NCBI GenBank assembly: GCA_009746045.1
Contig: RPFO01001805.1
Coordinates: 26,814 to 90,813 of the forward strand
Reading direction: 5' to 3'
DNA from: Mesostigma viride
Taxonomy: Eukaryota; Streptophyta; Mesostigmatophyceae; Mesostigmatales; Mesostigmataceae
Length of the DNA: 64,000 nucleotides
A program made the position numbers and the translations under genes. The number at the start of each line of letters is the position of its first letter. Within the stretch, counting starts at the first letter, position 1. The notes below the pieces were generated by a model that searched no databases, was not told the origin of the DNA, and saw nothing but the letters and a program-made list of their open reading frames with translations. Below, piece by piece: positions 18,487 to 63,566 of the stretch.

Positions 18487-18492
18487 GGCGGC

Positions 18493-21400: not shown

Positions 21401-22939
21401 GCTGATATCTGGCTAGATGGTCGAGTTTTGGAGCAAGTGCAGGGTGCTGTCTTGACTCCTACTCCAGTCGATTGGACTCCTGCTCAGAAGGCGACGGAGT
21501 TGAACAGGGTGCAGCACAGGGCTGCAACCTATGGTTGGGAAGATGGGGTTTTGTACAAGCTGTTGGGCAAGCGTAGGGTGGTCGTCCCACCGCCTGACAA
21601 GCGCGTTGCTATAGTGCAGGCGTACCACGAGCGGTATGGTCACTTGGGTGGCAATCGCACGCTCAGCCTCGTACGGACCAGCTATTGGTGGAATAACATG
21701 CGACACACAGTGGCCCAGGTAGTGGCCAGCTGTGTCCCGTGTGCTCGAACCAAGGCTAACTTTAGCGCAGATCATGGTGCCAAGGAGCTGATGTCGCTTC
21801 CCATCAAGGGCTTGTTTTATCGCTGGCACGTCGATCTGTGCGGGCCGTTTCAGGAGAGCCCTGACGGCAACCTCTATGTCATGGTATGCGTGGAGAGCTT
21901 TAGCAAATGGGTTGAGTTGATCCCCATTGCTGACAAGCATGCCGCTACCACAGCGAAGCATTTTGCAGACATCATCACCAGGTTTGGGGCTCCCGCGGAG
22001 GTAGTCACGGACCAGGGTGGTGAGTTCAGGGGTGAGTTCCAGGAGTTGCTGGATGGATGTCTTATTGATCACCGTCGCACTTCTCGGGAGCATCCTCAGG
22101 CCAATGGTTTGGCTGAGAGATTGGTGCAGACCGTCAAGCAGGCGCTGCGCAAGTGGAGCCTGCAGGTGCCGGAGTCGGCCAGGTGGGATCGCGAGTTGGC
22201 ATGGATTGCCATGGGTTATCGCATGTCTCCCCAGGAGTCTCTCGCTACCTTCTCCCCGTATTTCCTTCTGTTCGGGCGTAATCCTCTTTTGCCTACGGAG
22301 GCACAGGTTGCGCACCCCGAACCCATGGCCTTCGACAACGCTCAGCAATTTTTGGTTGAGGTGCTGGCCAGGGCAGAGACTTTTAAGAAGGTCATGCCCA
22401 TCGCGATGAACAACTTGTTCATTGCTCAGCACAGGGACTCCCTGCGCTACGCTCAGCGCCGGGGGGGCACATACATGGCTCGCCAGCTGCGGTTTAGGCC
22501 AGGGCAGTATGTTTTCCTGCGCACTCAGCTGAAGCACACTTTGGATGTGGAGGCGGGGCCCACCATTTTGCGCATTGTGGCTATCAAACCATCGGGAGTG
22601 GCAATTTTGGAGGGCGCCGACGGGAGCCGTACGACTGACAACCTCAGCAATCTCAGTCCCTGCTCGCTGCCCAATTTGGTCCACGACCTCCAACCGCACA
22701 CGTCTCGCCGAGTCAAGGACGCCCAGTGTCAGGTTTGTCACCGGGTCGATCAGGCGGAGTCCATGTTATTGTGTGATCAGTGTAACTGTGGTTGGCACAT
22801 GCAGTGCTTGCAGCCAGTGGTCACCAGCATTCCGGAGGGGGATTGGTTTTGTCCAGTGTGCACCGCTGCGCAGTTTACCTCCCGCAGCTTGACTGCGGTC
22901 ACCGCTGCCCTTGTCTTGGTACGATCGCTGTCTTCGTGA
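18493..22939 (+). pseudogene. Polyprotein of copy A (partial methyltransferase, RT, RNase H, integrase, PHD)
   Basis: The frame begins within the methyltransferase, so the ATG at 18493 is only an internal Met. In order: methyltransferase motif IV (GWECQGLS), ENV, and the HRLRAYWTN segment; RT with FVSSLDLRSGFHQI and the YIDD box (about 20,292); RNase H; integrase with an HHCC zinc site, D-D-E core (HVDLCGPF, VVTDQGG, then E of NGLAERL) and a PHD finger. Compared with copy B it lacks one T near 20,912 (run of T in TTTATT) and one G near 21,141, each shifting the frame. It is otherwise nearly identical. It cannot make a complete protein as assembled. Confidence 0.85.
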
Positions 22940-22965
22940 TGGGGCCGGTCGCCAGCGAGGGGGGG

Positions 22966-23108
22966 AATCATGGGACAGGTCCTCGCCCACCCCACAGGGC
23001 ATGCAGTTAAGGCAGGCACGTCAGCTAAGCTCATTTGGGTTTTACCAAATTAAGCTGAGTGGCCAGCCGCCATGGTGGCGCCGGAGATTGTGGCACGCAG
23101 ACGCGACA
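22966..23108 (+). repeat. 143-bp module X, inner copy of element A
   Basis: Runs from AATCATGGGACAGG to GACGCGACA just after the polyprotein stop and a GAGGGGGGG purine tract. It includes a hairpin (CTCAGCT... TTTGG/CCAAA ...AGCTGAG in the other copies). The same 143 bp occurs three more times in the window. Confidence 0.8.
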
Positions 23109-23129
23109 GCTGTCACGGACGCGAGCTAT

Positions 23130-24895
23130 TGGCTCACACCCAACAGTTTTGTCCTCAATTGAGGACAGTGCAATGCTGTTAATAACTCTTACACTAAAAA
23201 AAAATTAAATATGGGGCTTTGAACCATGATCATTTATGATGTGTTTGAGAGTTCCAATGCTTAACATCATCCATATGTGCGCATTTCCTATTTAATTATG
23301 AATTGTTACGTGCAGGGGGGCCTGCATCGGCAACCAAGGAAAACCCTCCACTATAATGCACGAGAGAATGAGACACAAAGACCATGCTTCCAAGGACCAC
23401 AAGCGGTCACCAAACCCATAGGACCCCTCCCTAACATGTGGCAGCCACCCCGGGGCTGCCCATGCTTGGCCACCCCACGGACAGCTATGGCATATGGCCA
23501 GGAACCCGATACGAGCAACTGCACTTGGCAGAGCACTAGGAAAGCTAGCTATGCCAAACTAGGGTAAGGACAGGTTTTCAGTGGCCGAGTAAGGTCCTAG
23601 GTCTTCGTAGGACGCTTAGGTGACACCATGGTGCTTTAGCACCCTAAGTAGAGCCATGCATGCAATATAAAGGGCTCATTATAGGTATCGCAAAGACGAA
23701 GAGCCTATCACAGCAGCAGAATGCCAACATGACAAGGTCAACTCCTCTACCTAGCTCCCTCTAGAAAAAGGGTTATATGTCAGAAACCAAATAGGCAAGA
23801 TCCCAGAAAGCCTGGGAAAAACTTTCAGCAACAAGGCAGCAACAAGAAACTATCCACACGTACGCTTACCATAGCAAGCAAGGCATTGCTTCTAACGCCA
23901 GCGTTGGCCATGCAGATAACGATTACCTTTGCATTGACGGAACGGAAGGAAAAAACGGTGGCCAGCTAACACTCGCCTCTCCCCATTCAACAGCGGCATG
24001 AAAATGAAGGGGCTGGGCATAATACACCATCGAAATCATACAATGTAATCGAATAACAACCTACGACATGTGTTGTCGTAATTTATATGAAGAAACGGAT
24101 GCGGATGATGTCCGGAGACGGCTTCTCGACGTGCTCCCAGCCGGCCAGATGCGCGGAAAGGCTCGAAAATTATAAAAGAAAGCATGGGGACGCGCGGGCA
24201 GCACCTAGCCTTGCGGCAAATGAAATCTATGGCTCGCGCCCACCGCCGTCGTCGCCAGGCGCAACGACGATCTGACGACATAAAAACTGGGTATATTTAA
24301 CGCTTCCAACCGCCCAAAATACTTGTACCCAGAACTCGCCCTTGAACCCGAAAGCGTAACAATACCCACCCTCACGGTATCCGTTGCTAATGTCAAGAAA
24401 AAAGCGCGCATCACAGAGCAGTATACCGGCTTGTCATGCAATCTACGTCGCCTCCCGTTTTTCTGCAAACTAGACAAATTCCGTTCATCAAAGAATTTTT
24501 TAGAGAATCAAAAGCGATTGCCCCCCAAAAACAGCTTGGGCGGAAGATCTAGATGTCGATCTATAATTCTGTCTTGGTCCGGGGCAAAACGATCGCCTGT
24601 ATAGTTCAGGCAAGCCTCGGACCTGGCTCGACCCCATAGCCGCAATTTGCGGGAACACACGCACGCATTGCAACGTTCCCACCAAAATAGGTACTTTTCT
24701 CCACCACATAATTTACAGGTACGGACGGGTCCTGTCGACCCCAGTACCGCGCCGCGCCGGGTACCGAGTCCATTTTCGCGGGAAAAGGGTCAGATGACCG
24801 TTGGGACCAAGGTTTCGCGCCAATACCTGCTGCTGAAGGTGCTGTCCTTATTGGGAGGATTTTGTCCTCAATTGAGGACATGTGAGTTTGGGGCA
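23130..24895. mobile_element. 1,766-bp insertion with TG..CA ends inside the LTR of copy A
   Basis: Comparison with copy B shows GAGCTATGTCATCC interrupted here, with CTAT present on both sides (23,126-23,129 and 24,896-24,899). The insert starts TGGCTCACACC and ends GTTTGGGGCA. An identical 18-bp palindrome, TGTCCTCAATTGAGGACA, sits 20 bp from the left end and 15 bp from the right end. It has no long frame. The 4-bp duplication and TG..CA ends suggest a solo LTR; the twin palindromes would also suit a small DNA transposon. Confidence 0.7.
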
Positions 24896-24899
24896 CTAT

Positions 24900-26133
24900 G
24901 TCATCCGGGCGGCGCCCACTATGCACAAGACCGGTGACGTGCGCAAGGAATTTGTTTTCTACGCATTTTCGACAAAGGCTAGTGACCGGGGGGGAACACT
25001 AGCACTTGTAGCATAAGAGCGGACGAAAGTGTACGTGCACGCGCGCCGGGCCAGGCACAGCTGGGCGCGCAGCACTGACTTGAGCGGACGGCAGCACAAG
25101 TGCGCAGCGTCGAGAGGATCATACGCGTGTTAGTGGACAGCTGGAGCTGAAGCTGGACTGCTGGACTTCAACAGCGCCGAGGCTATTGACAGGCCAGGTG
25201 TCTTTGTGGTGTAGAATAGCGGGTCAACGTTATGAGGACTGGACAGAAAATGGAAAAGGACAATTTGCGGTGCGCAGCCAGATCGCTGGAATGAATGCGA
25301 AATTGCTGGCAGCCCTACAAAGGGATTTCTTCTAGAAAGGAACGATTAGACGCAATGTTTGCTGGGCCACTCACACGCAAGGTGTGAGCGTGCAGATTGT
25401 CTGAAGGATATTATGCTTCGACCTTGGTGGACGTGACTCAATGCCGGACATTCCCAGGGACAGAAATGCCGGAGCCTCTAGGAGATGAGATCGGCAAGAG
25501 GGTAGCAATTTAGATTTGTCGGGATGCCTTCCTGCTTTTGTTGGCATGTGTGGTAGAAAGCCAGGACGGCAACTGGAATGCGGTTTCTATTTGCATGGTT
25601 CAGGCAGCAAGATAGTTTTGGCATTCCTGGCTGGACTGACAAGTGTGGCGTGTGTCATGCGTGTGGCATGACGAATGGTTTGGTTCATAGTCGAAGAGGA
25701 CTCTCACGCAGCGTGTAGTCTCTTCGAGTCTCTCGTTAGTGGCCTTCGTGTTTCTCCCTTTCCTTGGGAGCAAGGCCGGTAGCATGTCATGGAGCGCTGC
25801 CTAACTGCGGGCTCGTGAGCATGGAGTGCATCGATATTGAGACTATCAACGTGTTGTAATTGTATTAACTTTCTCAATAAATTCCGCATGTGCGGCTTCA
25901 TCATCAGACTGTGCAAAGTGTGTGTTGTGAAAGCATTGTTCTATAGCAGGGGAGGCAAAAGCACCCTCTTGCACCATCATATTGTCGCAATTAGAGTAGT
26001 TGGAGCGTCTAGCTAACGCCCCAGCAAGGATATTCAAACGCGGCACGCGACGGTACACAAGGGGATCAAGAAGGTGGTCATCAGGCACGAGGGACAGTTC
26101 CTTGTCCTCGGCTGAGAGCCCTCTTTTCATTAA
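24900..26133 (+). repeat. Long terminal region (Y) of copy A, 3' end
   Basis: Continues the LTR started at 23,111-23,129 after the insertion. It matches, in reverse, 61,068-62,315 and 51,423-52,572 of copy B. It ends CTCTTTTCATTA, followed by another module X. Confidence 0.85.
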
Positions 26134-29100
26134 TCATGGGACAGGTCCTCGCCCACCCCACAGGGCATGCAGTTAAGGCAGGCACGTCAGCTCAGCTCAT
26201 TTGGGTTTTACCAAATTAAGGGGTCCGGACGGACCTGCCCCCCCCCAAATTGAATACACATGTTTTGCACTCAATACTCATGCTGGCAATGCAAATTATG
26301 ATGGGGGACCATAAATATGACCCTTGGGCATGCATCTGGCTACTTTTTGAGTTCAAGGCCCATCACAATACAAGTGCAGGGAGCTTTTTTTGGCGCGCAC
26401 ACCCCCTAAAAGCACGGATTGCCTAGGACAACCCCCCCACACTTGTGTACCAAACACCATATTCCAGTCAAATCCCCACCCAGACCAAGGAATGGAGCTA
26501 ATTTGCAGCACCAAAATCGCACGTCTGGGCATACTTTGGCAGTTTACCGAAAAATACGTCTTTTTTGTGACTAAAAAAAAAAAATCAAATCAAATACGCA
26601 TGGGTTGGGCCCAGGGAGATATAGATAACTTCCACAGGGTGGGAATATCAATGGGACCAATTTTCAGCTCATTCTGACTGTAACAGTATTTTCTGACAGT
26701 GTGTATACTGTTACATCCAAGTGGACGTGAACTTGGAGTTCAACGTTCAGTGTAAATGGCTGAGTCTTTTGTACGGCCAAAGTGTAATGATTCCTGGCCT
26801 GACTTGACTTTTTGGGACTTATATGCGGAGTGCCCTTTTGATGGTGCTTTGTGTTGGGCCCTGGACGGTATGGGACAGTACCTTGGAATCTATGTGTTAT
26901 CTGACTGATGTCAGTTAGTATCTTTCGTAAGTTAGGGGTGTAAAGCATATATAGAGAGAACCTTACCGGTTCATCTGTGTTCTGATTGGCTGAGACCTGT
27001 AGGATTGCGTTGGACTCCTCTGTGTCGGCGGGGACATAACCTTTGCCTGTTTGTCACCATAGATAGCCATCACGCGGATACCCCCAATTATGTGAAGTTA
27101 TTTCTAATAACCAAACATGCTCACTTCAGGCCCTGTTATTGGACAGCCATATCCGATAGACAGGAAGTCTTGTGTCTGTATGAACAAGCAGAGAGACGCC
27201 CGACCAAAAGGGGACCACCGCTCTCTACCGCGTAAGTACCGTCTCGTAGGAATGGCCTCTAGACGGGAAACGACCACCCTCTATGATTCCTGGAGAGTGC
27301 TAGGAATCTCCCCTGTCTCTTGGGGTTTGATAAGTCCGTTCTGTCTTTAATGACAGGAGGTAAAAGATCTGTGCATTTAGTGGAGCAGAGACCACCATTT
27401 TATTCTGTTACACTGACCACGTATGTGAACAGGCATCACTTTTGTATGAAAAAAAAAATGCACAAAAATACGGTTTTATGCCAAATGGCTGCACCAATCA
27501 CAACCTTGCCCACCACCAAGTGGGGCAAACAAGGTGCCAGCAAGTCATTTATCATGCAAACTATCTTGGAATCAAAATTCAGGTCATTCTGAGCTAGACT
27601 GATGGCATAAACTAGTGTCCTCAACTGCCACCCCTCAACCCTAGTATAGACTGGCATGAGCTCAAACATAACCCTTTTCATCACCTGCCCACCACAAATC
27701 ATCAGCATCCTAACATAGACGGCTGCCAATTGAGTTATACAAACAGCCACCAAATGCAGGATCAAGCTGAGCATGAGCCTTGACTACTAGAGAGGTCATT
27801 CATAGCATGCAGCACCACACTATGGTAGCATAGTTGGCAATCTTCATTGGTAATAACAGAAATGTTTAGAGGCCCAAGCAACGTTCAATAGCAACAGAAA
27901 CATGTGGGATTAGATGGGTGACTCGTACATGCTAGCCACACCCCACACCTCACCATGGTTGTAAACCATGCTCAACAATAAGGTGTATAAACAGCATGCT
28001 CATATACACGTGCTATGCTGACTTAGAGTAGAGGATGATGCCTCAATCAACCAGCAATAATAACACAATGTTCTAACCCTGCAGGTTCACATCACCCCGT
28101 TCAAAAACCAACCAACAAAACAGAACTGTAAGCGCAAACACGAAATACAGCAAAGCCATAAGAGAAATGGCTTGCAGCCATCCTCATAAGCATGGCTAGC
28201 ATCCTTGAGAGCACATTGATTGTGATGCATAGTGGCTGTGATCCACAAATCTAAAGAGAACACACACGTAAGCATAGCTTACACATATACAAAGCATGGC
28301 CAGCAAGAGAAGTATAGCCACCTTGTTTCCCAGCACGTTGAGACGCACGGTTCATATGCTCGCCAGCTTGTTGCATGCCGCCCTCGAGGCATGCCGGGGT
28401 ACGTGTTGAATATGCAATATAAGCACTCTGCCATCCAAATCCTTCCATATATCATTACATTAACGTAGCAGCTTACCTTGATATTACCCAAATCAATCCT
28501 AGACAGGATTTCAGAGCTTGCCACGCATAACGTAAGCGAATCGGTTGAAAGCTGCCGGAAAACTAGAGACGTGCATGCAGCAAGCGGCGAACAAAACAAC
28601 GCACCCTTCCAGGAAACCGTGCTGAAAGCTTAGAATAAAGGGATTTCTAAACGCAATAGACTTCGGGGGTAACCACTGGATAATAGAGGTACAATGGCAT
28701 GCTATCATTCCTGACAAGGCGCGCAAGAAATGCCAGCCACCCATGGACGGGTTGACAGCGCATAAAGCAGGACCTGGCGTTTTCTTTCCGAAAATGACGA
28801 GGAAAAGTAATAAAATAAAAGGTTCTTTAACATTTTCAATCTCCCCGTTAATGAACGTTGCTTTCTGCATCGCTAGGGACTAAGAACCTTTGTAATTATC
28901 GCTGTAGGCATGTATTGCTGCTTATTCGTTGCGGCAAGATTTCCGGGCCAGACCCCCTCGCAAACGCGGATGAAAAATGGCATCGATCTCGTCAATAATG
29001 CATCTTCGGCTACGCAAGATCATGATGAAACTTTAATTTGACGCATCTGCATAATTTTCTGCGGTCTTATTGCCATATTACTGCATTTATTACCTAACGC

Positions 29101-29274
29101 ACGTCGCCATGGCCAACTTGGCGCAAGGGTTACGCGCATCGTGCACCACAATTTCACGTGACGGGTACCGGCGCGAATTTTTTGGCGCGAAATAATTCCG
29201 GTCCGTCCGGACCCCTTAAGCTGAGTGGCCAGCCGCCATGGTGGCGCCGGAGATTGTGGCACGCAGACGCGACA
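26132..29274 (+). repeat. Module X, outer copy of element A, split by a transposon
   Basis: 26,132-26,219 and 29,220-29,274 together make the 143-bp module. The break is at TTAA, duplicated at 29,216-29,219. Confidence 0.8.
26220..29215. mobile_element. piggyBac-type non-autonomous DNA transposon, 2,996 bp
   Basis: Perfect 16-bp terminal inverted repeats, GGGGTCCGGACGGACC and its complement, are bordered on both sides by TTAA (26,216-26,219 and 29,216-29,219). Removing the insert with one TTAA restores the module X sequence seen in the other three copies. TTAA duplication is the hallmark of the piggyBac superfamily (some Kolobok-type elements also use it). The interior is AT-rich with only short frames, the longest about 119 codons, and no DDD transposase is visible, so it depends on another copy. 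Confidence 0.85.
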
Positions 29275-29445
29275 ACCTCCCAGCCAAGGGGGGGGTTCCC
29301 CCCCCCTCCCACCCCCCCCTCCCACAACCAAGACCAGACCCCCTGTCTCCCAAGTCGCTACGGGTCACATTACGTTGCCACAATTGTGACTCTTCCATCT
29401 ACCTTTTCCCACAATACAATCCACCAATGTCACAGCCTACGACGT

Positions 29446-50600: not shown

Positions 50601-50985
50601 CAGCGATATTTGCTGGGCAGTGCGGTGCCGGTATCTTCGGAAATATTGAGCGATAGCTGTAGAAAATTATATCAGCGTGTTTGTCTTCAAAAAACGAGTC
50701 TAATGCAACCAACCCGATGAAATTTCATGGCCGGAGTCGAAAGTTATGAGCATTCTCGTATATTGCAACAGCGATATTTGCTGGGCAGGGCGGTGCCGGT
50801 ATCTTCAAAAATATTGAGCGATAGCTGTAGAAAATTATATCAGCGTGTTCGTCTTCAAAAGACGAGTCTAATGCAACCAACCCGATGAAATTTCATGGCC
50901 GGAGTCAAAAGTTATGAGCATTCTCGTATATTGCAACAGCGATATTTGCTGGGCAGGGCGGTGCCGGTATCTTCGGAAATGCTCG
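50601..50985 (-). promoter_or_regulatory. 168-bp tandem monomers upstream of LINE ORF1
   Basis: CAGCGATATTTGCTGGGCAG recurs at 50,601, 50,769 and 50,937, exactly 168 bp apart, with almost identical content (two full units and one partial). The array ends 15 bp before the ORF1 ATG. Tandem 5' monomers act as promoters in some LINEs (for example mouse L1), so this is likely the element's own promoter. Confidence 0.7.
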
Positions 50986-51279
50986 ACATGCACGTTGATA
51001 TTAGGACGTATGGGTTGCCATTGCTGGAATTGAATTGAATTGAATTGTAACATAACTCCGTTGGGAGAATATGTAGCACATATCCCTGAGAAGGGCATAT
51101 GGCTTTTAATACATTCTAGGCTACTTCCTGCAAGAGTGCATGGAATGTAAGCAGCACTTGCTCTAGGTGCCTCAAGGGCACCGGCACCACCATGCTGTCT
51201 CAGGTTCAACCCGCCTAAGGGGGGGATCCTGGCACGGGGGAGGAAGATCATCATGGCTATACAAGGGCTAGGGCATGGC
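50986..51279. other. Sequence between the LINE and copy B
   Basis: About 290 bp with AATTGAATTGAATTG repeats (51,028-51,046) and no gene. It ends with TGGC (51,276-51,279), the target duplication of copy B. Confidence 0.5.
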
Positions 51280-51422
51280 TGTCGCGTCTGCGTGCCACAA
51301 TCTCCGGCGCCACCATGGCGGCTGGCCACTCAGCTTAATTTGGTAAAACCCAAATGAGCTGAGCTGACGTGCCTGCCTTAACGGCATGCCCTGTGGGGTG
51401 GGCGAGGACCTGTCCCATGATT
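51280..51422 (-). repeat. Module X, outer copy of element B
   Basis: 143 bp, matching the three other copies. It ends the element at the TGGC duplication. Confidence 0.8.
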
Positions 51423-52572
51423 ATCCTTGCTGGGGCGTTAGCTAGACGCTCCAACTACTCTAATTGCGACAACATGATGGTGCAAGAGGATGCTTTTGCC
51501 TCCCCTGCTATAGAACAATGCTTTCACAACACACACTTTGCACAGTCTGATGATGAAGCCGCACATGCGGAATTTATTGAGAAAGTTAATACAATTACAA
51601 CACGTTGATAGTCTCAATATCGATGCACTCCATGCTCACGAGCCCGCAGTTAGGCAGCGCTCCATGACATGCTACCGGCCTTGCTCCCAAGGAAAGGGAG
51701 AAACACGAAGGCCACTAACGAGAGCCTCGAAGAGACTACACGCTGCGTGAGAGTCCTCTTCGACTATGAACCAAACCATTCGTCATGCCACACGCATGAC
51801 ACACGCCACACTTGTCAGTCCAGCCAGGAATGCCAAAACTATCTTGCTGCCTGAACCATGCAAATAGAAACCGCATTCCAGTTGCCGTCCTGGCTTTCTA
51901 CCACACATGCCAACAAAAGCAGGAAGGCATCCCGACAAATCTAAATTGCTACCCTGTTGCCGATCTCATCTCCTAGAGGCTCCGGCATTTCTGTCCCTGG
52001 GAATGTCCGGCATTGAGTCACGTCCACCAAGGTCGAAGCATAATATCCTTCAGACAATCTGCACGCTCACACCTTGCGTGTGAGTGGCCCAGCAAACATT
52101 GCGTCTAATCGTTCCTTTCTAGAAGAAATCCCTTTGTAGGGCTGCCAGCGATTTCGCATTCATTCCAGCGATCTGGCTCCGCACCGCAAATTGTCCTTTT
52201 CCATTTTCTGTCCAGTCCTCATAACGTTGACCCGCTATTCTACACCACAAAGACACCTGGCCTGTCAATAGCCTCGGCGCTGTTGAAGTCCAGCAGTCCA
52301 GCTTCAGCTCCAGCTGTCCACTAACACGCGTATGATCCTCTCGACGCTGCGCACTTGTGCTGCCGTCCGCTCAAGTCAGTGCTGCGCGCCCAGCTGTGCC
52401 TGGCCCGGCGCGCGTGCACGTACACTTTCGTCCGCTCTTATGCTGCAAGTGCTAGTGTCCCCCCCGGTCACTAGCCTTTGTCGAAAATGCGTAGAAAACA
52501 AATTCCTTGCGCACGTCACCGGTCTTGTGCATAGTGGGCGCCGCCCGGATGACATAGCTCGCGTCCGTGACA
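51423..52572 (-). repeat. Long terminal region (Y), 3' copy of element B
   Basis: About 1,150 bp, starting TGTCACGGACG. It lacks roughly 100 bp at its end relative to the 5' copy and copy A (joins GGATA directly to ATCATGGG, with short microhomology). Confidence 0.8.
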
Positions 52573-52574
52573 GC

Positions 52575-52717
52575 TGTCGCGTCTGCGTGCCACAATCTCC
52601 GGCGCCACCATGGCGGCTGGCCACTCAGCTTAATTTGGTAAAACCCAAATGAGCTGAGCTGACGTGCCTGCCTTAACTGCATGCCCTGTGGGGTGGGCGA
52701 GGACCTGTCCCATGATT
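52575..52717 (-). repeat. Module X, inner copy of element B
   Basis: 143 bp between the purine tract after the polyprotein stop and the long terminal region, in the same place as in copy A. Confidence 0.8.
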
Positions 52718-52809
52718 CCCCCCCTCGCTGGCGACCGGCCCCATCACGAAGACAGCGATCGTACCAAGACAAGGGCAGCGGTGACCGCAGTCAAGCTGCG
52801 GGAGGTAAA

Positions 52810-52960
52810 CTGCGCAGCGGTGCACACTGGACAAAACCAATCCCCCTCCGGAATGCTGGTGACCACTGGCTGCAAGCACTGCATGTGCCAACCACAGTTA
52901 CACTGATCACACAATAACATGGACTCCGCCTGATCGACCCGGTGACAAACCTGACACTGG
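52810..52960 (-). other. PHD finger at the C-terminus of the polyprotein
   Basis: CQVCHRVDQAESMLLCDQC, then NCGWHMQCLQ, then WFCPVC: a C4-H-C3 pattern with the conserved Trp two residues before the last cysteine pair. PHD fingers usually read histone H3 tails. It lies after the integrase core and its GPY-like region, a place where other Ty3 elements carry a chromodomain that guides insertion. Confidence 0.85.
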
Positions 52961-55900
52961 GCGTCCTTGACTCGGCGAGACGTGTGCGGTTGGAGGTCGT
53001 GGACCAAATTGGGCAGCGAGCAGGGACTGAGATTGCTGAGGTTGTCAGTCGTACGGCTCCCGTCGGCGCCCTCCAAAATTGCCACTCCCGATGGTTTGAT
53101 AGCCACAATGCGCAAAATGGTGGGCCCCGCCTCCACATCCAAAGTGTGCTTCAGCTGAGTGCGCAGGAAAACATACTGCCCTGGCCTAAACCGCAGCTGG
53201 CGAGCCATGTATGCGCCCCCCCGGCGCTGAGCGTAACGCAGGGAGTCCCTGTGCTGAGCAATGAACAAGTTGTTCATCGCGATGGGCATGACCTTCTTAA
53301 AAGTCTCTGCCCTGGCCAGCACCTCAACCAAAAATTGCTGAGCGTTGTCGAAGGCCATGGGTTCGGGGTGCGCAACCTGTGCCTCCGTAGGCAAAAGAGG
53401 ATTACGCCCGAACAGAAGGAAATACGGGGAGAAGGTAGCGAGAGACTCCTGGGGAGACATGCGATAACCCATGGCAATCCATGCCAACTCGCGATCCCAC
53501 CTGGCCGACTCCGGCACCTGCAGGCTCCACTTGCGCAGCGCCTGCTTGACGGTCTGCACCAATCTCTCAGCCAAACCATTGGCCTGAGGATGCTCCCGAG
53601 AAGTGCGACGGTGATCAATAAGACATCCATCCAGCAACTCCTGGAACTCACCCCTGAACTCACCACCCTGGTCCGTGACTACCTCCGCGGGAGCCCCAAA
53701 CCTGGTGATGATGTCTGCAAAATGCTTCGCTGTGGTAGCGGCATGCTTGTCAGCAATGGGGATCAACTCAACCCATTTGCTAAAGCTCTCCACGCATACC
53801 ATGACATAGAGGTTGCCGTCAGGGCTCTCCTGAAACGGCCCGCACAGATCGACGTGCCAGCGATAAAACAAGCCCTTGATGGGAAGCGACATCAGCTCCT
53901 TGGCACCATGATCTGCGCTAAAGTTAGCCTTGGTTCGAGCACACGGGACACAGCTGGCCACTACCTGGGCCACTGTGTGTCGCATGTTATTCCACCAATA
54001 GCTGGTCCGTACGAGGCTGAGCGTGCGATTGCCACCCAAGTGACCATACCGCTCGTGGTACGCCTGCACTATAGCAACGCGCTTGTCAGGCGGTGGGACG
54101 ACCACCCTACGCTTGCCCAACAGCTTGTACAAAACCCCATCTTCCCAACCATAGGTTGCAGCCCTGTGCTGCACCCTGTTCAACTCCGTCGCCTTCTGAG
54201 CAGGAGTCCAATCGACTGGAGTAGGAGTCAAGACAGCACCCTGCACTTGCTCCAAAACTCGACCATCTAGCCAGATATCAGCGGTGTAGCAATCAGCAAG
54301 AGAGCTACGCGCTAAGAGAGCCTGCACAGCGATCAGCTGCTGCAGAGAAGGATCAATGTCAAAGGACAGAGACCTACCCTCTTCCATAGCGCACACAGCT
54401 TTGGATGGCGTGAATGGCGACGGCCGCACCGGGTCGTCGCTGATGCCGAAGTCCGCCACAGAGTACTCGACACTGCGCCACCACGCCTCCTCCTCATCGT
54501 CGGCCGCATACCCAGCAGCGTTCACAAAGACCACAGAACCCGACGAGCCCTCGGCACCCATGGCCCGGGCTCCAGTGTGGTCAACAGTGGTAGGCATGGC
54601 GTATCGGGATAGCACATCGGCGTTGACATGGTCCTTGCCGGCCCGATGCACAATGGTCATGTGGTACTCCTGGATAATCATGGCCCATCGGGCGAGCTTA
54701 CCCGTCAGGTTGGTGTTGGTCATTAGCCACTGAAGCGGCTGGTGGTCTGTCACCAGAGTAAACACGCGCCCAAATAAATACGGGCGAAAGTGCTTGATGG
54801 CCCACACCACAGCCAGTGCCTCCCCCTCATAGGAAGAATACCGGCTCTCCGCTGGGTTGTTGCTGCGACTAGCATAAGCAATAACGTGCTCGCGCCCATC
54901 ACCATCCTTTTGCGCCAAGACCGCACCCAGTCCTACCTTGGACCAGTCGGTATATAACACAAATGGCAAAGCATAGTCAGGGGCGCGCAGAATCGGGCCG
55001 ACGTGAGCTCCTGCTTGATTGTCTCGATGGCGCGTTGCTGTGCGGGACCCCACGCCCACACGCACCCCTTCTTGAGTAACTCGGTCAAGGGCTTCACCTT
55101 GCTGCTGAAGTTCTCAATGTAACCTCGGTAATAGCCAGCCAAACCCAAATACGCCCGCACCCCTGAGACATCCGTGGGTACGGCGGCCTGCGCAATGGAT
55201 TCGACCTTGGCGGCATCAGGCGTCCGGCCACCCGGCACAATCTGATGACCAAGGAATGAGAGGGTCCGCTGGGCGAACTTGCACTTCTCAGGGTGCAGCC
55301 GCATATTATGCTCCTCGAGAGCCAAGCGAACCTGCTCCAAGTGCGCCAGGTGCTCCTCAAATGTCGCGCTAAAGACGATTACATCATCAATGTAACAAGC
55401 GGCGAAAGGAAGACCTGCAAGCACTTTGTCCATAGCTCGTTGGAAAACAGCACTAGCGTTGCGGTGCCCAAAGGGCATGCGCACCCACTCATACAAATTG
55501 CCGCCCCCCAGAATGCAAGCTTCCGCTGATCCTCCGGCGCAACTGCGATCTGATGAAAGCCGCTACGCAGGTCCAGCGAGGACACAAACTTCACATGAGG
55601 AGATATCTTATCCAGGACATCATCCACACGTGGCATGGGGTAACGGTCCACGGGTGTGTGTGCATTCAGCAACCGCAGATCGGTGGCCATGCGCATACCC
55701 GTCCATGCCCCGGTGATAGCGTCCTTCTTGGGCGCAACGACAACGGCAGCAGCATAGCTGGAGGAAGATTGCCTGATGATACCGGCATCCTCTAACTCCT
55801 TGCATTGCTCGGCTACAAAATCCAACTCGGCCTGACTCAGGCGATGCTGGCGTCGGAACAAAGGAGTGTCAGTGTCCAATGGAACACGCATGGTCCCACC

Positions 55901-56329
55901 ATTGAAACACCCCAGTTCATCACTTGTGAAAGCGAAGGCCCCCCTTGCAGTGCCTAGCCACTTTAGCATGGCTGAGCGCTGCGCATCAGAAAGGTGTTCG
56001 CCAATAGCCCAGGGGTGCGTATCCGCGGGATCACCCACAGCTACCGCATGTGCCTCAAGATGCGGCGCCCTAGCCGCATCGTCGTGGAACAAGGAAAAGG
56101 CTGCCACACCTGGTGTGACACCCACCGCCGGAGCCTCGCGTGCCGCACGGTGTATTACCCGATGCAGCGTGGGCTCGCCGGCCAGCACGGTGCTGGTCAG
56201 CAGGGCGGTCATGAGAATGATAGTCCACACCTGTCGCAGACGCCACCCCCATGCTGATGAAGTCCCCGTCGCTGCAGGGCGCTTCAGTTTGGCTGCGCGC
56301 GCCTCAACCTGCTGAGGCGGATTGGCTGG

Positions 56330-57345
56330 GGACGCCCCCCCAGACTGGCGCACGGCAACCGATGCAAGCAGCACATACCCGACCTGCAACACCGACATAG
56401 CCTGGCCTATCAAAGACCAGCGCTCACTCTCGAGCACGCCCGGCAGCGCCGAGGCCCCGACATGAAAACCCATGCTGGCCTCACGAAATTCTGCGGGTGG
56501 CTGCACCAACAGACCGGTGGTAGTGTCCCAAACGAGACCCTTACCCCGATCACGGTATGCTGTCGACCCTTGGTAACTGACCAGGGTCGGCAGTGCACAC
56601 ATGGGGCTCCCGACCCGGTTGACGCGTGCATACGGTGGGCGATCCTCGCTATCCACCTTCTGCGTGACTAGGTGGGAAGGCAATGCTACCTCCGCAGACA
56701 CACTCGGATGCTGCCTTGCGACGGCCCCTAAGACCGCCTGCACACCGGTCGCACACGCCACGTTGGTCCAATAGGCACGCAAACGATGCGTGAGCCCACC
56801 CAGCCCTGCGTTGTCACACACGATGGGCTCCCCCAGGAGTGCCACGATTGTAGCCCAGTCCTCCCGCACCGCCTGATGTGGGCTGTCACCCGCCACAACG
56901 TTCTCAAACAGATACGCAGGCGGATGGGGCTGACGCGACTGCAACAGTCCCACCACACGCAACAGTTCCCAGAACAGCGCGCTACGCGGATCGGCTAGCC
57001 CCCGCCCTTGCCCTGCCTGGCTCAGGCCCTGGCACTCCCAACCCGCAATTACCAAGTCGATGGCATGATGCCTGCGCAACAACTGCTGCACCTGCACCTC
57101 ACCGATGGCTCGGATATCTTGAGGACATTCCCCAAACGGGTCACGCCATGCTGATGGCGGAAACTGCGCGGGATACTCTCGCGACAACACGCCACAGTGA
57201 CTGAAGTACACCTGACGCGCCTTGTGCGATGGCTCTACCGCGATGAGTTTACGGCACACGCCGCCTGCGGCCAAAAAGCCTGCAATGCCCCCTCCGATCC
57301 CCGCAAACAGTTCCAACACTACCGCACCCTTGGCAAAATCAGGGG
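56330..57345 (-). other. Cytosine-5 DNA methyltransferase domain in the polyprotein
   Basis: Motif I LELFAGIGGGIAGF binds S-adenosylmethionine (57,285-57,330). Motif IV is AGWECQGLSQAG with the catalytic Cys-Gln (about 57,030). Motif VI is FENVV (about 56,905). Motif VIII-like HRLRAYWTN (about 56,775) resembles the RxRYFWxN of DNMT3/DRM enzymes. LPTLVSY and SLIGQAMSVLQVGY fit motifs IX and X. All motifs are in the canonical order. The usual Pro before Cys is Glu here. It is copied intact in B, while copy A lacks motif I. Confidence 0.85.
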
Positions 57346-60300
57346 CCTGCGGTAAGATTGCAGCAGAAAAATTACCTTGGGCCTCCGAGACACCCGGTTG
57401 CACCAAAGTGAGGCCATGGCTGGCCATCTGAGGAATGGTGATGACGGCTTCAGTCACCCGCTTGCGCATAGCCAGCTGCCGCGTGGACGTCACAGCATCC
57501 AGCGACCACTGCGTGCGCATCTTGGCAATGCTCGCCGTTGGCTGAGGCAGCACCGTCCGATGCTTGTCCCACGCCGATGAGCCCGCCGCCCGTACCTCCA
57601 CCATGCTGACCTCCACCACGCCCGCAGCCGCGGAAGGGTTGAGGCGTGCAGCCCCGGCTGAAGAACTGAAGCATGAGACCGGCACACTGGCCCGCTTCAG
57701 GCCAGCCCCATCCCAATCAGGGATGTAAGATGCCTCCTCCGCCCTATAGTCCACCTGAACCATGGCGCGAGCAAGGACATCCACCCCGAGTAGTGCGGAA
57801 TATCCACACTTGTTGACCACCAGCGCATACGCGGACACGGTGGTCATGCTAGAGGCGCGCAACGGATTGAAAATCACGTTGACTTTAACCGCCGTCATAG
57901 CGTACGGCTTACTAGCCGGACCCTGCCAACCTGACACAGACACGGGGCTTTCTACTAAGCCACCGTTCTCGTAGGTCAGGTTCAGCATGGTGGCCAAGTC
58001 TGTGCTGATGACTAGCGGCTGAGCACCGCTATCAAGCTTGACTGCGCCAACCAACGGACATGTCACCATGTCGCTCCATACATCTCCACAGGCTCCAACT
58101 GCTTGGAACGCTATGGACGGCTCACCATTGGGGTATGGAACTACCGTGGGAACCTGGGGAACTGCACTAGTGCGCTGCTGGCTACTTGTGCTGACCACTC
58201 CCGCTTGCACCACGGGCACTGCGGCTTCTACCGGCTGACGCCCGTAGGTGACGGACTCAGAATTGCGCAAGGTGCGCACATCATGCCCATCTGCGAACAA
58301 CTGGATCTCGGACACAACCGACCCCAGCCACTCAACCCCCTTCTGCCCGAAGGTGTCGACCACCTGCCGTGCTGAAAACATGGGTACGTCCACAATGAAC
58401 GGCATTGGGTACACAGGCGCCAATCGCCTACGCTGCTCCAGCCCAGCAGGGTTCGCATGCTCAAAAGCAGATTGCACCCCAGCCAGCGGCATGGAAAAGG
58501 ACGCGGGCAACTGCCCGGCAGGCAACATGGGTGCCTGCTGAAAAGAAAGCGGGCTGCGTGCCTGCTTGCCTTTGGTAGCCTCCGCAGCGTTGATCTCGAC
58601 GTCACCCGGCATGGGCGCCCAGAATGGGTCCTCCCGGTACACCGTCGCGAATTGGTTGGGGGGCGCCGTCGCCTCCTCACCATGCTTGATGGCAGCCACC
58701 TGGGCTTCCATCGAGTCGGTCTTGCCCGCCATCTCGGCGAAGTGGACCGTCTTGATGCCCGCGGCTGGACACTTGTTCATCAGGTGCCACTTCGTGTCTG
58801 CCCCATGCGGCTTCGTGCAGCGGCTTGGACACTCGCGACTAAGGTGCCCATCCTTGTCGCAAAGGTAACATTTACCGCGTGACGGGGTGGGTGCGCCCAG
58901 CGCGCCTTGCACGCCCTGCGCCTCCTGAGTCCCATCCGATGACGGCGGACGACCGCCTCCGCCTCGACCACCACCGCGACCCCGACCACCGTAGCCACTG
59001 CCGCCGCCACCACGACTGACACCGCCGCTGCCACCCTGACCGCCACCGCCGCTGCCACCCTGACCGCCACCGCCGCTGCCCCCGTGACCGGCGTTGCCAC
59101 CACCCTGAGTGCCGACATATTCACCGCGCCCCGCACCAGGCAGCCGCTGGCCACCCTTGACCGCGATGGCCTTCTCCATCTCAGCCATCTTCTTGCGCAT
59201 CTCAGCCAGCTCAGACGAGATACCCTTCTCGCCTTCCGCACGCTTCCTGAGCAGCCGCTTGAATGCTGCACAGAGAGTCACCAAAGTCCACTCCCCACCG
59301 GGCGGCTCCGGAAGATCGATGGCCAGCAGGGGCACTGCACTCCGCCATAACCGGCAAGCCTTGGTCTGCGTATAATCAGGCACTTTGCCCGCAAACGCGA
59401 GAAGCCGGTCAAGGGAGAAAGCCGGATCCTCACCCTCGGCGACGGTGAACGCTCCATTCCATTCCGCGATGGCCTTGACGTGCTCAACTGGGTACTCCAG
59501 CCGCAGTTGCTGCCACAGCTGCTCTGCCGGGTCGACATCGAAGATGATCGAGTCGAGATCCGGTGTGCCCATGTCCGTGAGCGCAAACCATATGTCCGTG
59601 CGATGACATCGGTCCACGAGCGCTCGGTAATGCTGGACCAAAACCTGGACCTTCTTCTTGGTCAGGTCATGGAAAAAAAGGTGAATAAAATCCATCACCA
59701 TCTCATGGCGAAGAGGATACCCCGAGGCATAACGATAAGTGTTACAATGAGCTCGGAAGAGCTCATAGGCTTCCTCTAAAGTCGCACCCGTGCCTGCTGA
59801 GGTGAACTTCTCGCGAAGCTCCACCTTGGGCAGCGATGGCACACGAGTGGATTCGCCATGCACGCCGTACGGCATGCGGTGGGGTCGCTGGACGTCGTCG
59901 CCCTCACCCCATGGTATGCTGGCTACCTCCCGATCGACTTGGCCCCAGCCGAAGTCTGACCGAGTGCCGCCAAGCCTGGGCCGCCCTGCGGTGCCACCCA
60001 ACGGCGTTGCTGCCGCCGTCATGGGTGGCCGACCTGTGCTAAACAAGCCACCTGATGCTCCCCCCCTGGGGGCTGCACCATACCCGCCGCGCCACGATAA
60101 CGTGCCTTGGTTGGGTGCCCGTAGGTTCCCCCCAGCGTATAAGATGCGTCGGCAGTCGACCGGGTGCCTACCCGACCGACGTTCGGCTGCAGCTCGTCAT
60201 CCTGCGCCATTTCCCCGTCGCCCCGCCGTTGACCGCTTGGTCCGACGCGTGGCTGACTGGGCTCAACGTTGCGTAGTGGACCTGTCCCACTGCGCTCTTC

Positions 60301-60795
60301 GTCGAAGTGTCCGCGTTGGTCGCGCAGCGCCTCATGTCGCCGCGCTTCCTCGGCAGCGGCCTCCTCGTCGGCAGCCTGCCTGGCCTCGGCGTCGCGTTGG
60401 GCCGCAGCTTGGCAGGCGCGTGCAGCTTCCGTGGTTGCCTCCGCCTGCCGCCGTTGCTCAGCGCGCTCCGTAGCACGCCTCGCTTCAGCCGTAGATTCCG
60501 CGCGCTCCAAAGCAAGTCGCACAGTTTCTTCAACAAGCGTCGCCTGTTGCGATAACTGCGTCGCTTGCTGAGCTCGGAGTGCCGCCAGCTCTGCCGCTTG
60601 CTCTTGCAGCAGGCGCAGCACTTGGGTAAGAGCACCACCGTCCCCTGCCGAAGAAAGGGAAGGCGCTCCATTACCTAACAAAGCGGTGTCCGCACTAGTG
60701 CCGAGACGACCGCTGGGCGGGTCAGTTGCTTGACCGCCCGTAGCTGCCGGCGCTGACCCACCACTGCCTGATGCTGTGGGGTCAGTTCCTGACAT

Positions 60796-61067
60796 GTTGA
60801 TGGTGGTATCGACCCTGGAGAGCTCCTGCCCGTCGGTGTCGACGCCCGTGTTGGCACAGCCTGCGTGGCTTGCCAAAAACGCTGTGACCGACCTAGTGTG
60901 ATATGACATAAACTGCCACAACCACTACCAAGTAGCAACGGTCTAATCTGAAAGACTTAATGGTTGATCAGGCCACTATGTGTGCTAGTCTTCCCCAGAA
61001 AACTGCACACCGTCTCTCTTTGCTGAAATGAAAATGTTCCTTTGCAGATGGAGCTAGTCTCTTCGAG
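60796..61067 (-). other. Untranslated leader of copy B
   Basis: Between the 5' long terminal region and the Gag start. No primer-binding site matching a known tRNA end was identified with confidence; TGGTAGTGGTTGTGG (about 60,920-60,935) is a candidate only by its TGG start. Confidence 0.4.
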
Positions 61068-62315
61068 TAATGAAAAGAGGGCTCTCAGCCGAGGACAAGG
61101 AACTGTCCCTCGTGCCTGATGACCACCTTCTTGATCCCCTTGTGTACCGTCGCGTGCCGCGTTTGAATATCCTTGCTGGGGCGTTAGCTAGACGCTCCAA
61201 CTACTCTAATTGCGACAATATGATGGTGCAAGAGGGTGCTTTTGCCTCCCCTGCTATAGAACAATGCTTTCACAACACACACTTTGCACAGTCTGATGAT
61301 GAAGCCGCACATGCGGAATTTATTGAGAAAGTTAATACAATTACAACACGTTGATAGTCTCAATATCGATGCACTCCATGCTCACGAGCCCGCAGTTAGG
61401 CAGCGCTCCATGACATGCTACCGGCCTTGCTCCCAAGGAAAGGGAGAAACACGAAGGCCACTAACGAGAGACTCGAAGAGACTACACGCTGCGTGAGAGT
61501 CCTCTTCGACTATGAACCAAACCATTCGTCATGCCACACGCATGACACACGCCACACTTGTCAGTCCAGCCAGGAATGCCAAAACTATCTTGCTGCCTGA
61601 ACCATGCAAATAGAAACCGCATTCCAGTTGCCGTCCTGGCTTTCTACCACACATGCCAACAAAAGCAGGAAGGCATCCCGACAAATCTAAATTGCTACCC
61701 TGTTGCCGATCTCATCTCCTAGAGGCTCCGGCATTTCTGTCCCTGGGAATGTCCGACATTGAGTCACGTCCACAAGGTCGAAGCATAATATCCTTCAGAC
61801 AATCTGCACGCTCACACCTTGCGTGTGAGTGGCCCAGCAAACATTGCGTCTAATCGTTCCTTTCTAGAAGAAATCCCTTTGTAGGGCTGCCAGCGATTTC
61901 GCATTCATTCCAGCGATCTGGCTCCGCACCGCAAATTGTCCTTTTCCATTTTCTGTCCAGTCCTCATAACGTTGACCCGCTATTCTACACCACAAAGACA
62001 CCTGGCCTGTCAATAGCCTCGGCGCTGTTGAAGTCCAGCAGTCCAGCTTCAGCTCCAGCTGTCCACTAACACGCGTATGATCCTCTCGACGCTGCGCACT
62101 TGTGCTGCCGTCCGCTCAAGTCAGTGCTGCGCGCCCAGCTGTGCCTGGCCCGGCGCGCGTGCACGTACACTTTCGTCCGCTCTTATGCTGCAAGTGCTAG
62201 TGTCCCCCCCGGTCACTAGCCTTTGTCGAAAATGCGTAGAAAACAAATTCCTTGCGCACGTCACCGGTCTTGTGCATAGTGGGCGCCGCCCGGATGACAA
62301 GCTCGCTCCGTGACA
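61068..62315 (-). repeat. Long terminal region (Y), 5' copy of element B
   Basis: About 1,248 bp, starting TGTCACGGAGCG and ending near CTCTTTTCATTA, then the untranslated leader. It lacks module X on both sides, unlike the 3' end. Contains TTCTAGAA and a short ACTCGAAGAGACTA repeat that recurs in the leader. Confidence 0.75.
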
Positions 62316-62690
62316 TGGCGTCTCGACAGAGAGCATCTCTCTGCTACTGCCTAGGCATAGCATGGCGAAATTCTTAATGCAACGTCCATGGAGTCCCATT
62401 ATAGGCATGGCGTGGCTAAATTCTTAATGCAACATCCATGGGGGCCATTATGAGCGCACATGCGCGTGGGCCACATGCTAGGCTAAGCCTGACTAATCTA
62501 CACTACTGCTAACGACTAATCTACATTGCTGGAACGTTTGTTGTGATCTAATTCTAACATGTATAATAAGGTTCGCATTATTCATCCATCCTCAAAGCCT
62601 CTTGCTCGTTGACCACTTTCAGTTCCACAGAAGTAGTCAAGGATATTACTTGTCTAACTTACTGAGATAACTAACACAAATCACACACTT
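62316..62690. other. Flank of copy B with a short duplication
   Basis: AAATTCTTAATGCAAC followed by TCCATGG occurs twice (about 62,370 and 62,413). No gene. Confidence 0.4.
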
Positions 62691-62965: not shown

Positions 62966-63349
62966 CTATGCATGCGTCTTGGACTGCCTCATACATGGAC
63001 TGCTACATGCATCCGTCTTTGACTGCCATGCAGGACAAGACGCGGTGGAAGAAGATTGTCAAGGCGCACACGCCTGACCCTGTGGGCAAGCCCCCTCCCC
63101 CCAAGCGGAGGAGGCGTTTTGAAGTAGTGTAGTTATGATTTCTAGATAGCTTAGAGTTAGGATCGTTCGATCACGCGGCTTCCTCCACCCCATCCATCAT
63201 CATGAATATGTGCTAACATGATCTCCCCACGGAGCATGTTATAACTTAATTTAATTTAATTTAATTTAGTTTTTAATATGCATGCCTGAGATGACTAATT
63301 AAAATCCTGCTAGCTCCCTTTGGGGATCATGAGCAAAATATAATCGCGA
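62966..63349 (+). other. Possible protein C-terminus, otherwise non-coding
   Basis: A frame ending at 63,132 (TRWKKIVKAHTPDP then PPPPKRRRRFEVV) is strongly basic and ends in a nuclear-localisation-like stretch. It looks like the tail of a broken gene but has no recognisable domain or clear start. AT-rich repeats (TTTAATTTAATTTAA, about 63,250) follow. Confidence 0.25.
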
Positions 63350-63566
63350 CGGATGGATGGATGGATGGATGGATGGATGGATGATGGATGGATGGATTGG
63401 ATGGATGGATGATGTGATGGATGGGATGGATGGATGGATGGATGGATGGATGGATGATGGATGGATGGATGGATGGATGGATGGATGGATGGATGATGAT
63501 GGATGGATGGATGGATGGATGGATGGATGGATGGATGATGGATGGATTGGATGGATGGATGGATGG
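63350..63566. repeat. GATG tetranucleotide tract
   Basis: About 217 bp of GATG with GATGATGG and GGATTGG interruptions, preceded by a diverged copy of the leader repeat seen at 41,770. The Asp/Gly/Trp/Met frames here are artefacts. Confidence 0.85.

What the first reader, a model, noticed from the sequence alone, without database searches (positions are those of the whole stretch)
51280..62315. Ty3-type retrotransposon carrying both a DNA methyltransferase and a PHD finger
One polyprotein combines a DNA-methylating enzyme (writer) and a histone-reading finger with the usual retroelement enzymes. The element could methylate DNA, perhaps its own or its target's, and choose or mark chromatin through the PHD finger. 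Retrotransposons with methyltransferases have been described in a few algae and dinoflagellates; I do not recall one that also ends in a PHD finger. The domain order and motifs are seen directly; the joint function is inferred.
Basis: partly seen in the sequence, partly recalled or inferred. Interest (0 to 1): 0.95.

Follow-up and report, generated by a model that had tools for sequence, protein, structure and literature searches.

The report
Algal retrotransposon with methyltransferase and PHD
A young jumping gene in the green alga Mesostigma carries both a DNA-methylating enzyme and a histone-reading finger, belongs to a widespread green-algal family of such elements, and appears to insert itself in an unusual, rearranged form.

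Summary
Minus strand 51280-62315 is a Ty3-type retrotransposon of Mesostigma viride with gag, protease, a DNMT3-like C5-methyltransferase, RT, RNase H, integrase and a C-terminal PHD finger. Overlapping open frames of two window copies chain all domains. Of other genomic copies, MTase is in 20 of 20 upstream stretches and PHD in 26 of 30 loci (three do not reach it; L018 lacks it).

It is not unique: 111 of 120 listed relatives carry both domains, with the MTase before the integrase rather than before RT. The catalytic Cys stands in 89 of 94 near-full MTase domains; the domain is as conserved as RT. Nearest described element: KnitGypsy-Dnmt3 of Klebsormidium (2018).

New here, as far as my searches reach: the conserved PHD, nearest to readers of unmodified H3K4; a self-complementary primer site; and split repeats (L-int-S-GC-L-S) with TGTC...GACA ends and 4-bp target duplications (11 of 13 pairs, plus the window). 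That is what a DDE integrase would leave by opening a two-LTR circle at an internal GACA.GC.TGTC site. Methylation, histone binding and the circle step are inferred, not shown.

The parts
51276..51279 (.). Target-site duplication TGGC, left copy
   Evidence: Read directly; pairs with 62316-62319
51280..51422 (-). S2, outer short repeat; its end ...GCGACA is the element's 3' terminus
   Evidence: 99.3% identical to S1; 20 distinct flanks follow S2-type GACA in the loci
51423..52572 (-). L2, long repeat (in this copy about 96 nt shorter at the L2/S2 junction than in most insertions seen)
   Evidence: 99.3% identical to L1; junction comparison
52573..52574 (-). GC spacer between S1 and L2 (GACA.GC.TGTC)
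   Evidence: Same in all 29 loci that hold an S1, 25 distinct places
52575..52717 (-). S1, inner short repeat
52718..52728 (-). Polypurine tract GCGAGGGGGGG directly before S1 (putative plus-strand primer)
   Evidence: Read directly; before S1 in the other S1 loci
52822..52956 (-). PHD finger, C-terminal to integrase
   Evidence: PF00628 E 3.4e-9; PDB relatives BAZ2B, Lid, BAZ2A, CHD4, ATXR5
53587..54096 (-). Integrase: H2C2 zinc finger plus rve DDE core
   Evidence: PF17921, PF00665
54664..54978 (-). RNase H
   Evidence: PF17917 E 3.1e-39
52744..55065 (-). ORF with RNase H, integrase and PHD in one frame (773 aa)
55239..55951 (-). Reverse transcriptase; frame interrupted in this copy, open in copy 2
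   Evidence: PF00078 on two ORFs, start by own profile; one stretch in copy 2
56342..57328 (-). DNMT3-like C5-cytosine methyltransferase domain (329 aa)
   Evidence: PF00145 E 5.6e-11; AF2 model pLDDT 94.0; best PDB matches DNMT3A/B
57779..58039 (-). Aspartic-protease-like region (weak)
   Evidence: PF13650 E 0.076, below cut-off; the Closterium relative has it above cut-off
58823..58876 (-). CCHC zinc knuckle (gag)
   Evidence: PF00098 E 2.2e-4
55379..60046 (-). ORF with gag C part, protease, MTase and first part of RT (1555 aa)
60019..60921 (-). Gag N-terminal ORF, out of frame with pol here; same frame in 14 of 17 other stretches with a match
61055..61068 (-). Putative primer-binding site ACTCGAAGAGACTA at the inner end of L1'
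   Evidence: Exactly complementary to 61471-61484; the only self-complement of 12 nt or more, over 60 nt apart, in window 61001-62315
61471..61484 (-). Putative self-primer TAGTCTCTTCGAGT inside L1
61069..62315 (-). L1', 5' long repeat; starts TGTCAC at 62315
62316..62319 (.). Target-site duplication TGGC, right copy
18490..29285 (+). Second, damaged copy on the opposite strand: MTase (truncated) to S1, L2 with an insert at 23130-24895, 96 nt of 5' internal sequence, S2 with an insert at 26221-29215
   Evidence: 99.8% identity over 4642 nt

Best explanation
A young, self-primed Ty3-type retrotransposon of Mesostigma viride. It belongs to a clade seen in chlorophytes, streptophyte algae and (integrase-PHD part) a liverwort, whose integrase ends in a PHD finger and whose polyprotein in most of the relatives listed carries a DNMT3-like C5-methyltransferase. 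Shown: the domains gag-PR-MTase-RT-RNaseH-INT-PHD in overlapping open frames; split repeats L1'-int-S1-GC-L2'-S2; TGTC...GACA termini; 4-bp target duplications; a primer-binding site complementary to a site within L. Inferred: (1) the RNA primes its own reverse transcription (about 0.8). (2) Conventional LTR synthesis from the primer site and polypurine tract yields cDNA with LTR = S.GC.L' at both ends; it is joined end to end and the integrase opens one internal GACA.GC.TGTC site, inserting L'-int-S.GC.L'-S with a 4-bp stagger (about 0.55). (3) The methyltransferase acts on DNA, most likely CpGs of the element's own cDNA before or at integration (about 0.5). (4) The PHD takes the chromodomain's place and tethers the integrase complex to nucleosomes whose H3 tail is unmethylated at K4 (about 0.5).
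Against: No methylation, binding or circle data. The methyltransferase has Glu for Pro in motif IV (WECQ). The published yeast assay of KnitGypsy-Dnmt3's domain was negative though inconclusive. 13 of 20 Mesostigma MTase stretches share a frame break in the assembly. 5 of 94 relatives' MTases lost the catalytic site although integrase and PHD persist, and 21 of all 115 MTase matches, fragments included, show none of three motif patterns. In the streptophyte-type clade only Mesostigma and P0129 show the MTase together with RT; several relatives' ORFs with RT-RH-INT-PHD show none, perhaps because they start just before RT. Some L2/S2 variants are single bases and may be later mutations or errors. 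L005, L010, L013 and L018 depart from the layout. CpG transitions are 9 of 26 transitions between paired L repeats and CpG o/e is 0.86-0.94: no clear footprint of methylation. Two pairs lack an exact 4-bp duplication.
Confidence: 0.6

Rival explanations
1. PAT/DIRS-like reverse transcription: the outer S2 is regenerated during cDNA synthesis by template switching on S1, giving a linear molecule with TGTC...GACA ends that the integrase uses directly; no circle-junction cleavage.
For: The repeat order equals that of DIRS/PAT elements; de Mendoza et al. 2018 say so for KnitGypsy-Dnmt3 (Fig. 4 legend).
Against: No tyrosine recombinase among the Pfam matches, and 4-bp duplications are present. The sequence before S2 varies (9 of 20) while S1/L2 is fixed; simple template copying would not predict that.
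Confidence: 0.3
2. The MTase is kept for a non-catalytic job, such as DNA or RNA binding or polyprotein assembly, and does not methylate.
For: Motif IV Pro-to-Glu in 48 of 94 domains; 5 of 94 without the catalytic Cys yet with INT-PHD; negative yeast assay of the nearest relative.
Against: Catalytic Cys in 89 of 94. Domain identity falls to 0.33 in pairs that include a dead one, as if catalysis were what is selected.
Confidence: 0.3
3. Ordinary Ty3 element in which host DNMT3 and PHD exons were captured as passengers with no function in transposition.
For: Accessory domains are known in retroelement polyproteins (PMC6338049, passages).
Against: Both domains recur across chlorophytes and streptophyte algae, the PHD also in a liverwort, with RT-like conservation in the chlorophyte-type layout.
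Confidence: 0.05
4. Chimera by assembly error or nested insertion.
For: Frame breaks in both window copies.
Against: MTase in 20 of 20 stretches at the same place, P0129 with part of the MTase and the rest in one ORF, and unrelated species.
Confidence: 0.01

Closest known systems
KnitGypsy-Dnmt3 of Klebsormidium nitens (de Mendoza et al. 2018, PMC5890265; abstract, sections 9, 10, 11 and passages read)
   Same: Gypsy pol carrying a DNMT3-related MTase; repeats arranged as in DIRS; streptophyte alga
   Different: 'PHD' has 0 occurrences in its main text; sections 9-11 say nothing of primer, target duplications or integration route. I could not see its figures, and no KnitGypsy-Dnmt3 sequence was at hand; two Klebsormidium integrase fragments do end in a PHD (P0124, P0136) but I cannot tie them to it
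SymbioDIRS-Dnmt3 (same paper)
   Same: Retroelement DNMT3; CG methylation shown in yeast
   Different: DIRS class; here a DDE integrase and 4-bp duplications
Chromoviruses, including Chlamyvir and Tcn1 (Neumann et al. 2019, PMC6317226; passages)
   Same: Ty3 with a chromatin-reading-type domain behind the integrase; most Tcn1 predicted self-primed
   Different: Chromodomain rather than PHD; 'PHD' and 'methyltransferase' have 0 occurrences in the main text
Ginger1 DNA transposons, e.g. Ginger1-9_HM (PMC2836005; passages)
   Same: Gypsy-like integrase with extra C-terminal domains including PHD, TGT ends, 4-bp duplications
   Different: DNA transposon; Ulp1 present; CCGG/CCGT-specific target
DNMT3A/DNMT3B
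   Same: Closest solved fold of the MTase. Their ADD domain, a PHD-like reader of unmodified H3K4 (recalled), makes a similar writer-reader pair
   Different: 18-24% identity; PHD is on the integrase side of the polyprotein, not beside the MTase; WECQ motif
IS3/IS911 minicircle junction and retroviral 2-LTR circles (recalled, no call)
   Same: Abutted ends with a short spacer as substrate, DDE enzyme
   Different: Retroviral 2-LTR circles are held to be dead ends; here the junction is encoded in every LTR

Membership tests
Ty3/gypsy retrotransposon | Gag-CCHC, protease, RT, RNase H, then integrase | tested here: met
   protease only weak in this copy
Ty3/gypsy retrotransposon | Two plain identical LTRs at the ends | tested here: not met
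   L1'-int-S1-GC-L2'-S2
Ty3/gypsy retrotransposon | TG..CA termini with short target duplication | tested here: met
   TGTC...GACA, 4 bp exact in 11 of 13 pairs plus window
Ty3/gypsy retrotransposon | RT phylogeny inside Ty3 | not tested
   Only an integrase tree within relatives was built
DIRS/PAT element | Split direct repeats | tested here: met
DIRS/PAT element | Tyrosine recombinase instead of DDE integrase | tested here: not met
   rve found, no recombinase match at E up to 0.1 in the window ORFs scanned
DIRS/PAT element | No target duplication (recalled) | tested here: not met
   4-bp duplications
DNMT-encoding Gypsy (KnitGypsy-Dnmt3) | DNMT3-type MTase inside Gypsy pol with DIRS-like repeats | tested here: met
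Chromovirus | C-terminal chromodomain | tested here: not met
   No chromodomain match at E up to 0.1; PHD there instead
DNMT3 family | C5-MTase motifs with the catalytic Cys, and fold closest to DNMT3 | tested here: met
   by sequence alone DRM and HhaI chains score best, weakly
DNMT3 family | Branching with host DNMT3 in a rooted tree | not tested
   No host DNMT3 rows; the PF00145 genome search did not complete
PHD finger reading unmodified H3K4 | C4HC3 zinc ligands | tested here: met
PHD finger reading unmodified H3K4 | Binds H3 tail unmodified at K4 | not testable with these tools
   Only sequence nearness

The most novel reading that the evidence does not exclude
A widespread green-plant clade of Ty3 elements integrates from circles: its DDE integrase does not use the cDNA ends but a pre-made end-to-end junction (GACA.GC.TGTC) encoded inside every LTR, so that each genomic copy is a circularly permuted two-LTR form. 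The same polyprotein writes CpG methylation on its cDNA and reads unmethylated H3K4, rebuilding the DNMT3-ADD pairing within a mobile element. The repeat layout is shown here for Mesostigma only.
Probability: 0.35. Interest if true: 0.85.

Novelty: new variant of a known kind. Interest (0 to 1): 0.64.

Why it matters
In the papers I saw, a DNMT-bearing Ty3 element is described in detail for one alga; an opinion paper adds, in one passage, that DNA-methylase-encoding Ty3/Gypsy and DIRS elements occur in green algae too (PMC6338049), and I lowered interest from 0.66 to 0.64 for that. Here MTase plus PHD turns out to be the common form among 120 listed relatives, under clear constraint, with loss of catalysis in a volvocalean-type group as a built-in control. 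That makes an open question testable: do retroelements methylate their own DNA, and does a reader finger choose where they land? The split-repeat copies with 4-bp duplications suggest that a retroviral-type integrase can use a circle junction productively, against the usual view (recalled) that two-LTR circles are dead ends.

Tried and rejected
Rejected: assembly chimera; uniqueness of the MTase+PHD pair; DIRS membership; the window copy as the typical form, since it lacks about 96 nt before S2 that most insertions seen have; the idea that GC after GACA is a target duplication, as it is fixed only between S1 and L2 and varies after S2.
Full report
What is there. The window is from Mesostigma viride: the MTase region is identical to a Mesvir1 gene model (P0001), and G000, which holds the window as C1642:26814-90813, has 439.9 Mb. 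On the minus strand, 51280-62315, lies a Ty3-type element. Pfam finds zf-CCHC, DNA_methylase, RVT_1, RNase H, H2C2, rve and PHD in this order; protease is weak here but clear in a Closterium relative. Copy 1 is interrupted between RT and RNase H. A second copy on the other strand at 18490-29285 is open there and interrupted elsewhere. Between them, overlapping intact frames run gag-PR-MTase-RT (copy 1), MTase (truncated)-RT-RNaseH (copy 2) and RNaseH-INT-PHD (copy 1). The N-terminal gag ORF is in frame with pol, without a stop in the matched stretches, in 14 of 17 other stretches with a match.

Other copies. From 40 scored matches to the 145-nt repeat, out of 610 first-look candidates, 30 loci were given, and I fetched 20 upstream stretches. 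MTase is present in 20 of 20: 6 open throughout, 13 with a frame break at the same place, 1 partial. PHD is present in 26 of 30 loci, one with a stop (L006); L015, L023 and L026 do not reach it, and L018 is an S repeat on unrelated sequence. Frame breaks that recur at the same spots may be assembly errors or inherited; I cannot tell. Some loci overlap or are duplicate contigs of one insertion; by 3' flank there are 20 distinct S2 ends. Paired long repeats differ by 0-0.78% in 14 elements, so the family moved recently.

Repeat architecture. The ends are not plain LTRs. In sense order the copies read L1'-internal-S1-GC-L2'-S2, L about 1155 nt plus about 100 nt, S 143 nt. Exceptions: L005 and L010 run from L2' on into the primer site, L013 has a large loss in L2, L018 has no L, L007 is cut by the contig end. 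The outer ends are TGTCAC...GCGACA. Of 20 stretches, 13 gave both flanks; the 4-bp duplication is exact in 11 of these 13 (the misses are TCGG/GCGG and ACCG/ACCA; in L043, which held two L starts, I used the one that leads into the element). The window has GCCA in sense. Chance per pair is 1 in 256. S1 is preceded by GCGAGGGGGGG, a polypurine tract, and joined to L2 by GACA.GC.TGTC in all 29 loci that hold an S1 (25 distinct places). The 14 nt before S2 have the commonest form in 11 of 20 distinct S2 ends and differ in 9, from single bases to large losses; the window copy lacks about 96 nt there. At the inner end of L1' stands ACTCGAAGAGACTA, exactly complementary to a site within L, at the 18 of 18 places printed (which printed places with a match or with CGAAGAG). 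In window 61001-62315 it is the only self-complement of 12 nt or more with arms over 60 nt apart. This points to self-priming as in Tf1 (recalled) and as predicted for most Tcn1 elements (PMC6317226, passages).

How it most likely works. Priming at the L' end and at the polypurine tract would, by the ordinary LTR mechanism, give cDNA with LTR = S.GC.L' at both ends. None of the 15 stretches in which I found a 5' end starts with S; they start at TGTCAC. Joining the two cDNA ends and opening one internal GACA.GC.TGTC site gives exactly the observed L'-int-S.GC.L'-S, with a fixed S1/L2 junction (templated) and a variable L2/S2 junction (made by joining; some single-base variants may be later mutations). 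The steps from cDNA to circle to insertion are inferred. The rival is PAT-like template switching during cDNA synthesis.

The PHD. It sits right behind the integrase, where chromoviruses have a chromodomain. Each zinc ligand is kept in over 90% of 120 aligned PHDs (P0006 left out). Nearest solved chains are BAZ2B, Lid, BAZ2A, CHD4, ATXR5 and WSTF; from recall most of these read unmodified H3K4. Where K4me3 readers have a cage Trp, two before the His (recalled), this family has Gly. So H3K4me0 reading is the best guess, untested.

The wider family. Of 258 homologues of the INT-PHD part of P0002, 120 were listed; 111 of 120 have both MTase and PHD by my domain profiles, all with the MTase before the integrase, and 9 have PHD without a detected MTase. 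Named hosts include Tetrabaena, Pleodorina, Volvox, Chlamydomonas, Haematococcus, Monoraphidium and Chromochloris. With the window's own INT-PHD as query, 183 hits, 120 listed, 114 of them new: 97 of 114 have the PHD, among them Klebsormidium, the liverwort Calypogeia, Volvox, Gonium and Pseudoscourfieldia. Two layouts occur: MTase before RT (Mesostigma; P0129, whose MTase is cut at the ORF start; Closterium P0003, which ends after the MTase) and RNase H-MTase-INT-PHD. In an integrase tree of 79 of 211 rows, Mesostigma falls in a clade of 29 rows, SH-aLRT 100, with P0129, Klebsormidium, Calypogeia and Closterium integrases; no row of it shows an MTase between RNase H and integrase, but apart from Mesostigma and P0129 none shows one before RT either, their ORFs often starting close to RT. 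Some members lack the PHD (four Closterium rows, P0178, P0181; P0180, P0213, P0216 and P0232 may be truncated). The three MTases that stand before RT group at SH-aLRT 92.9 against 41 others after three long branches were left out. Whether one MTase moved or two were captured is open.

Known work. De Mendoza et al. 2018 (PMC5890265; abstract, sections 9-11, passages) describe KnitGypsy-Dnmt3: DNMT3 in Gypsy pol, repeats as in DIRS, purifying selection on the DNMT, and no activity of its domain in yeast, which they call inconclusive; SymbioDIRS-Dnmt3 domains did methylate CG. 'PHD' has 0 occurrences in its main text; I could not see its figures. A 2025 DNMT survey (PMC12344493, passages) mentions DNMT3 in LTR Copia and DIRS elements of streptophytes and dinoflagellates. 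An opinion paper (PMC6338049, passages) speaks of DAM- and DCM-encoding Ty3/Gypsy and DIRS elements in green algae and charophytes among others. Neumann et al. 2019 (passages) has 0 occurrences of PHD or methyltransferase. Ginger1-9_HM (PMC2836005, passages) shows that a Gypsy-like integrase with a PHD exists in DNA transposons. So the kind is known; the conserved PHD, the second layout and its breadth, the primer site, and the target duplications with the fixed and variable junctions are what I add, as far as my searches reach.

Noticed in passing
18490-29285: Second copy of the element on the opposite strand, with a 1.77 kb insert (23130-24895, TTTTGTCCTCAATTGAGGACA near both ends) in L2 and a 3 kb insert (26221-29215) in S2.
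   Followed up: partly
P0104, P0087, P0091, P0092, P0120: MTase domain retained but catalytic Cys lost in Chlamydomonas, Pleodorina and three metagenome elements, while INT and PHD stay conserved.
   Followed up: partly
P0004: Metagenome protein with a C5-MTase at its N end before RT and RNase H, WPCQ motif; possibly DIRS-like, no integrase match.
   Followed up: no
L031-L050, L003-L030: Single-base frame breaks recur at the same spots (MTase in 13 of 20 stretches; integrase near residue 134-139 in 8 loci); assembly error or inherited, undecided.
   Followed up: partly
L043/L016: One insertion lies inside the L repeat of another copy, with its 4-bp duplication AAAG.
   Followed up: no
L005 (C1566) and L010 (C1513): L2' runs on into the primer site as in a tandem or longer joined form; L010 then has a shortened S2.
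   Followed up: no
L018 (C1391): An S repeat preceded by sequence that is neither L nor the polypurine tract; perhaps a remnant or a related element.
   Followed up: no
P0139: Protein labelled as a Spirochaetia MAG is an algal-type INT-PHD, probably contamination.
   Followed up: no
47227-47891; 50601-50980; 63340-63570: 43-nt minisatellite, 168-nt tandem repeat and a GGAT-rich simple repeat.
   Followed up: no
46278-46317 and 49660-49699: Perfect 40-nt inverted pair 3.3 kb apart; the right arm lies in ORF 49556-50362, which has no Pfam match above cut-off.
   Followed up: no
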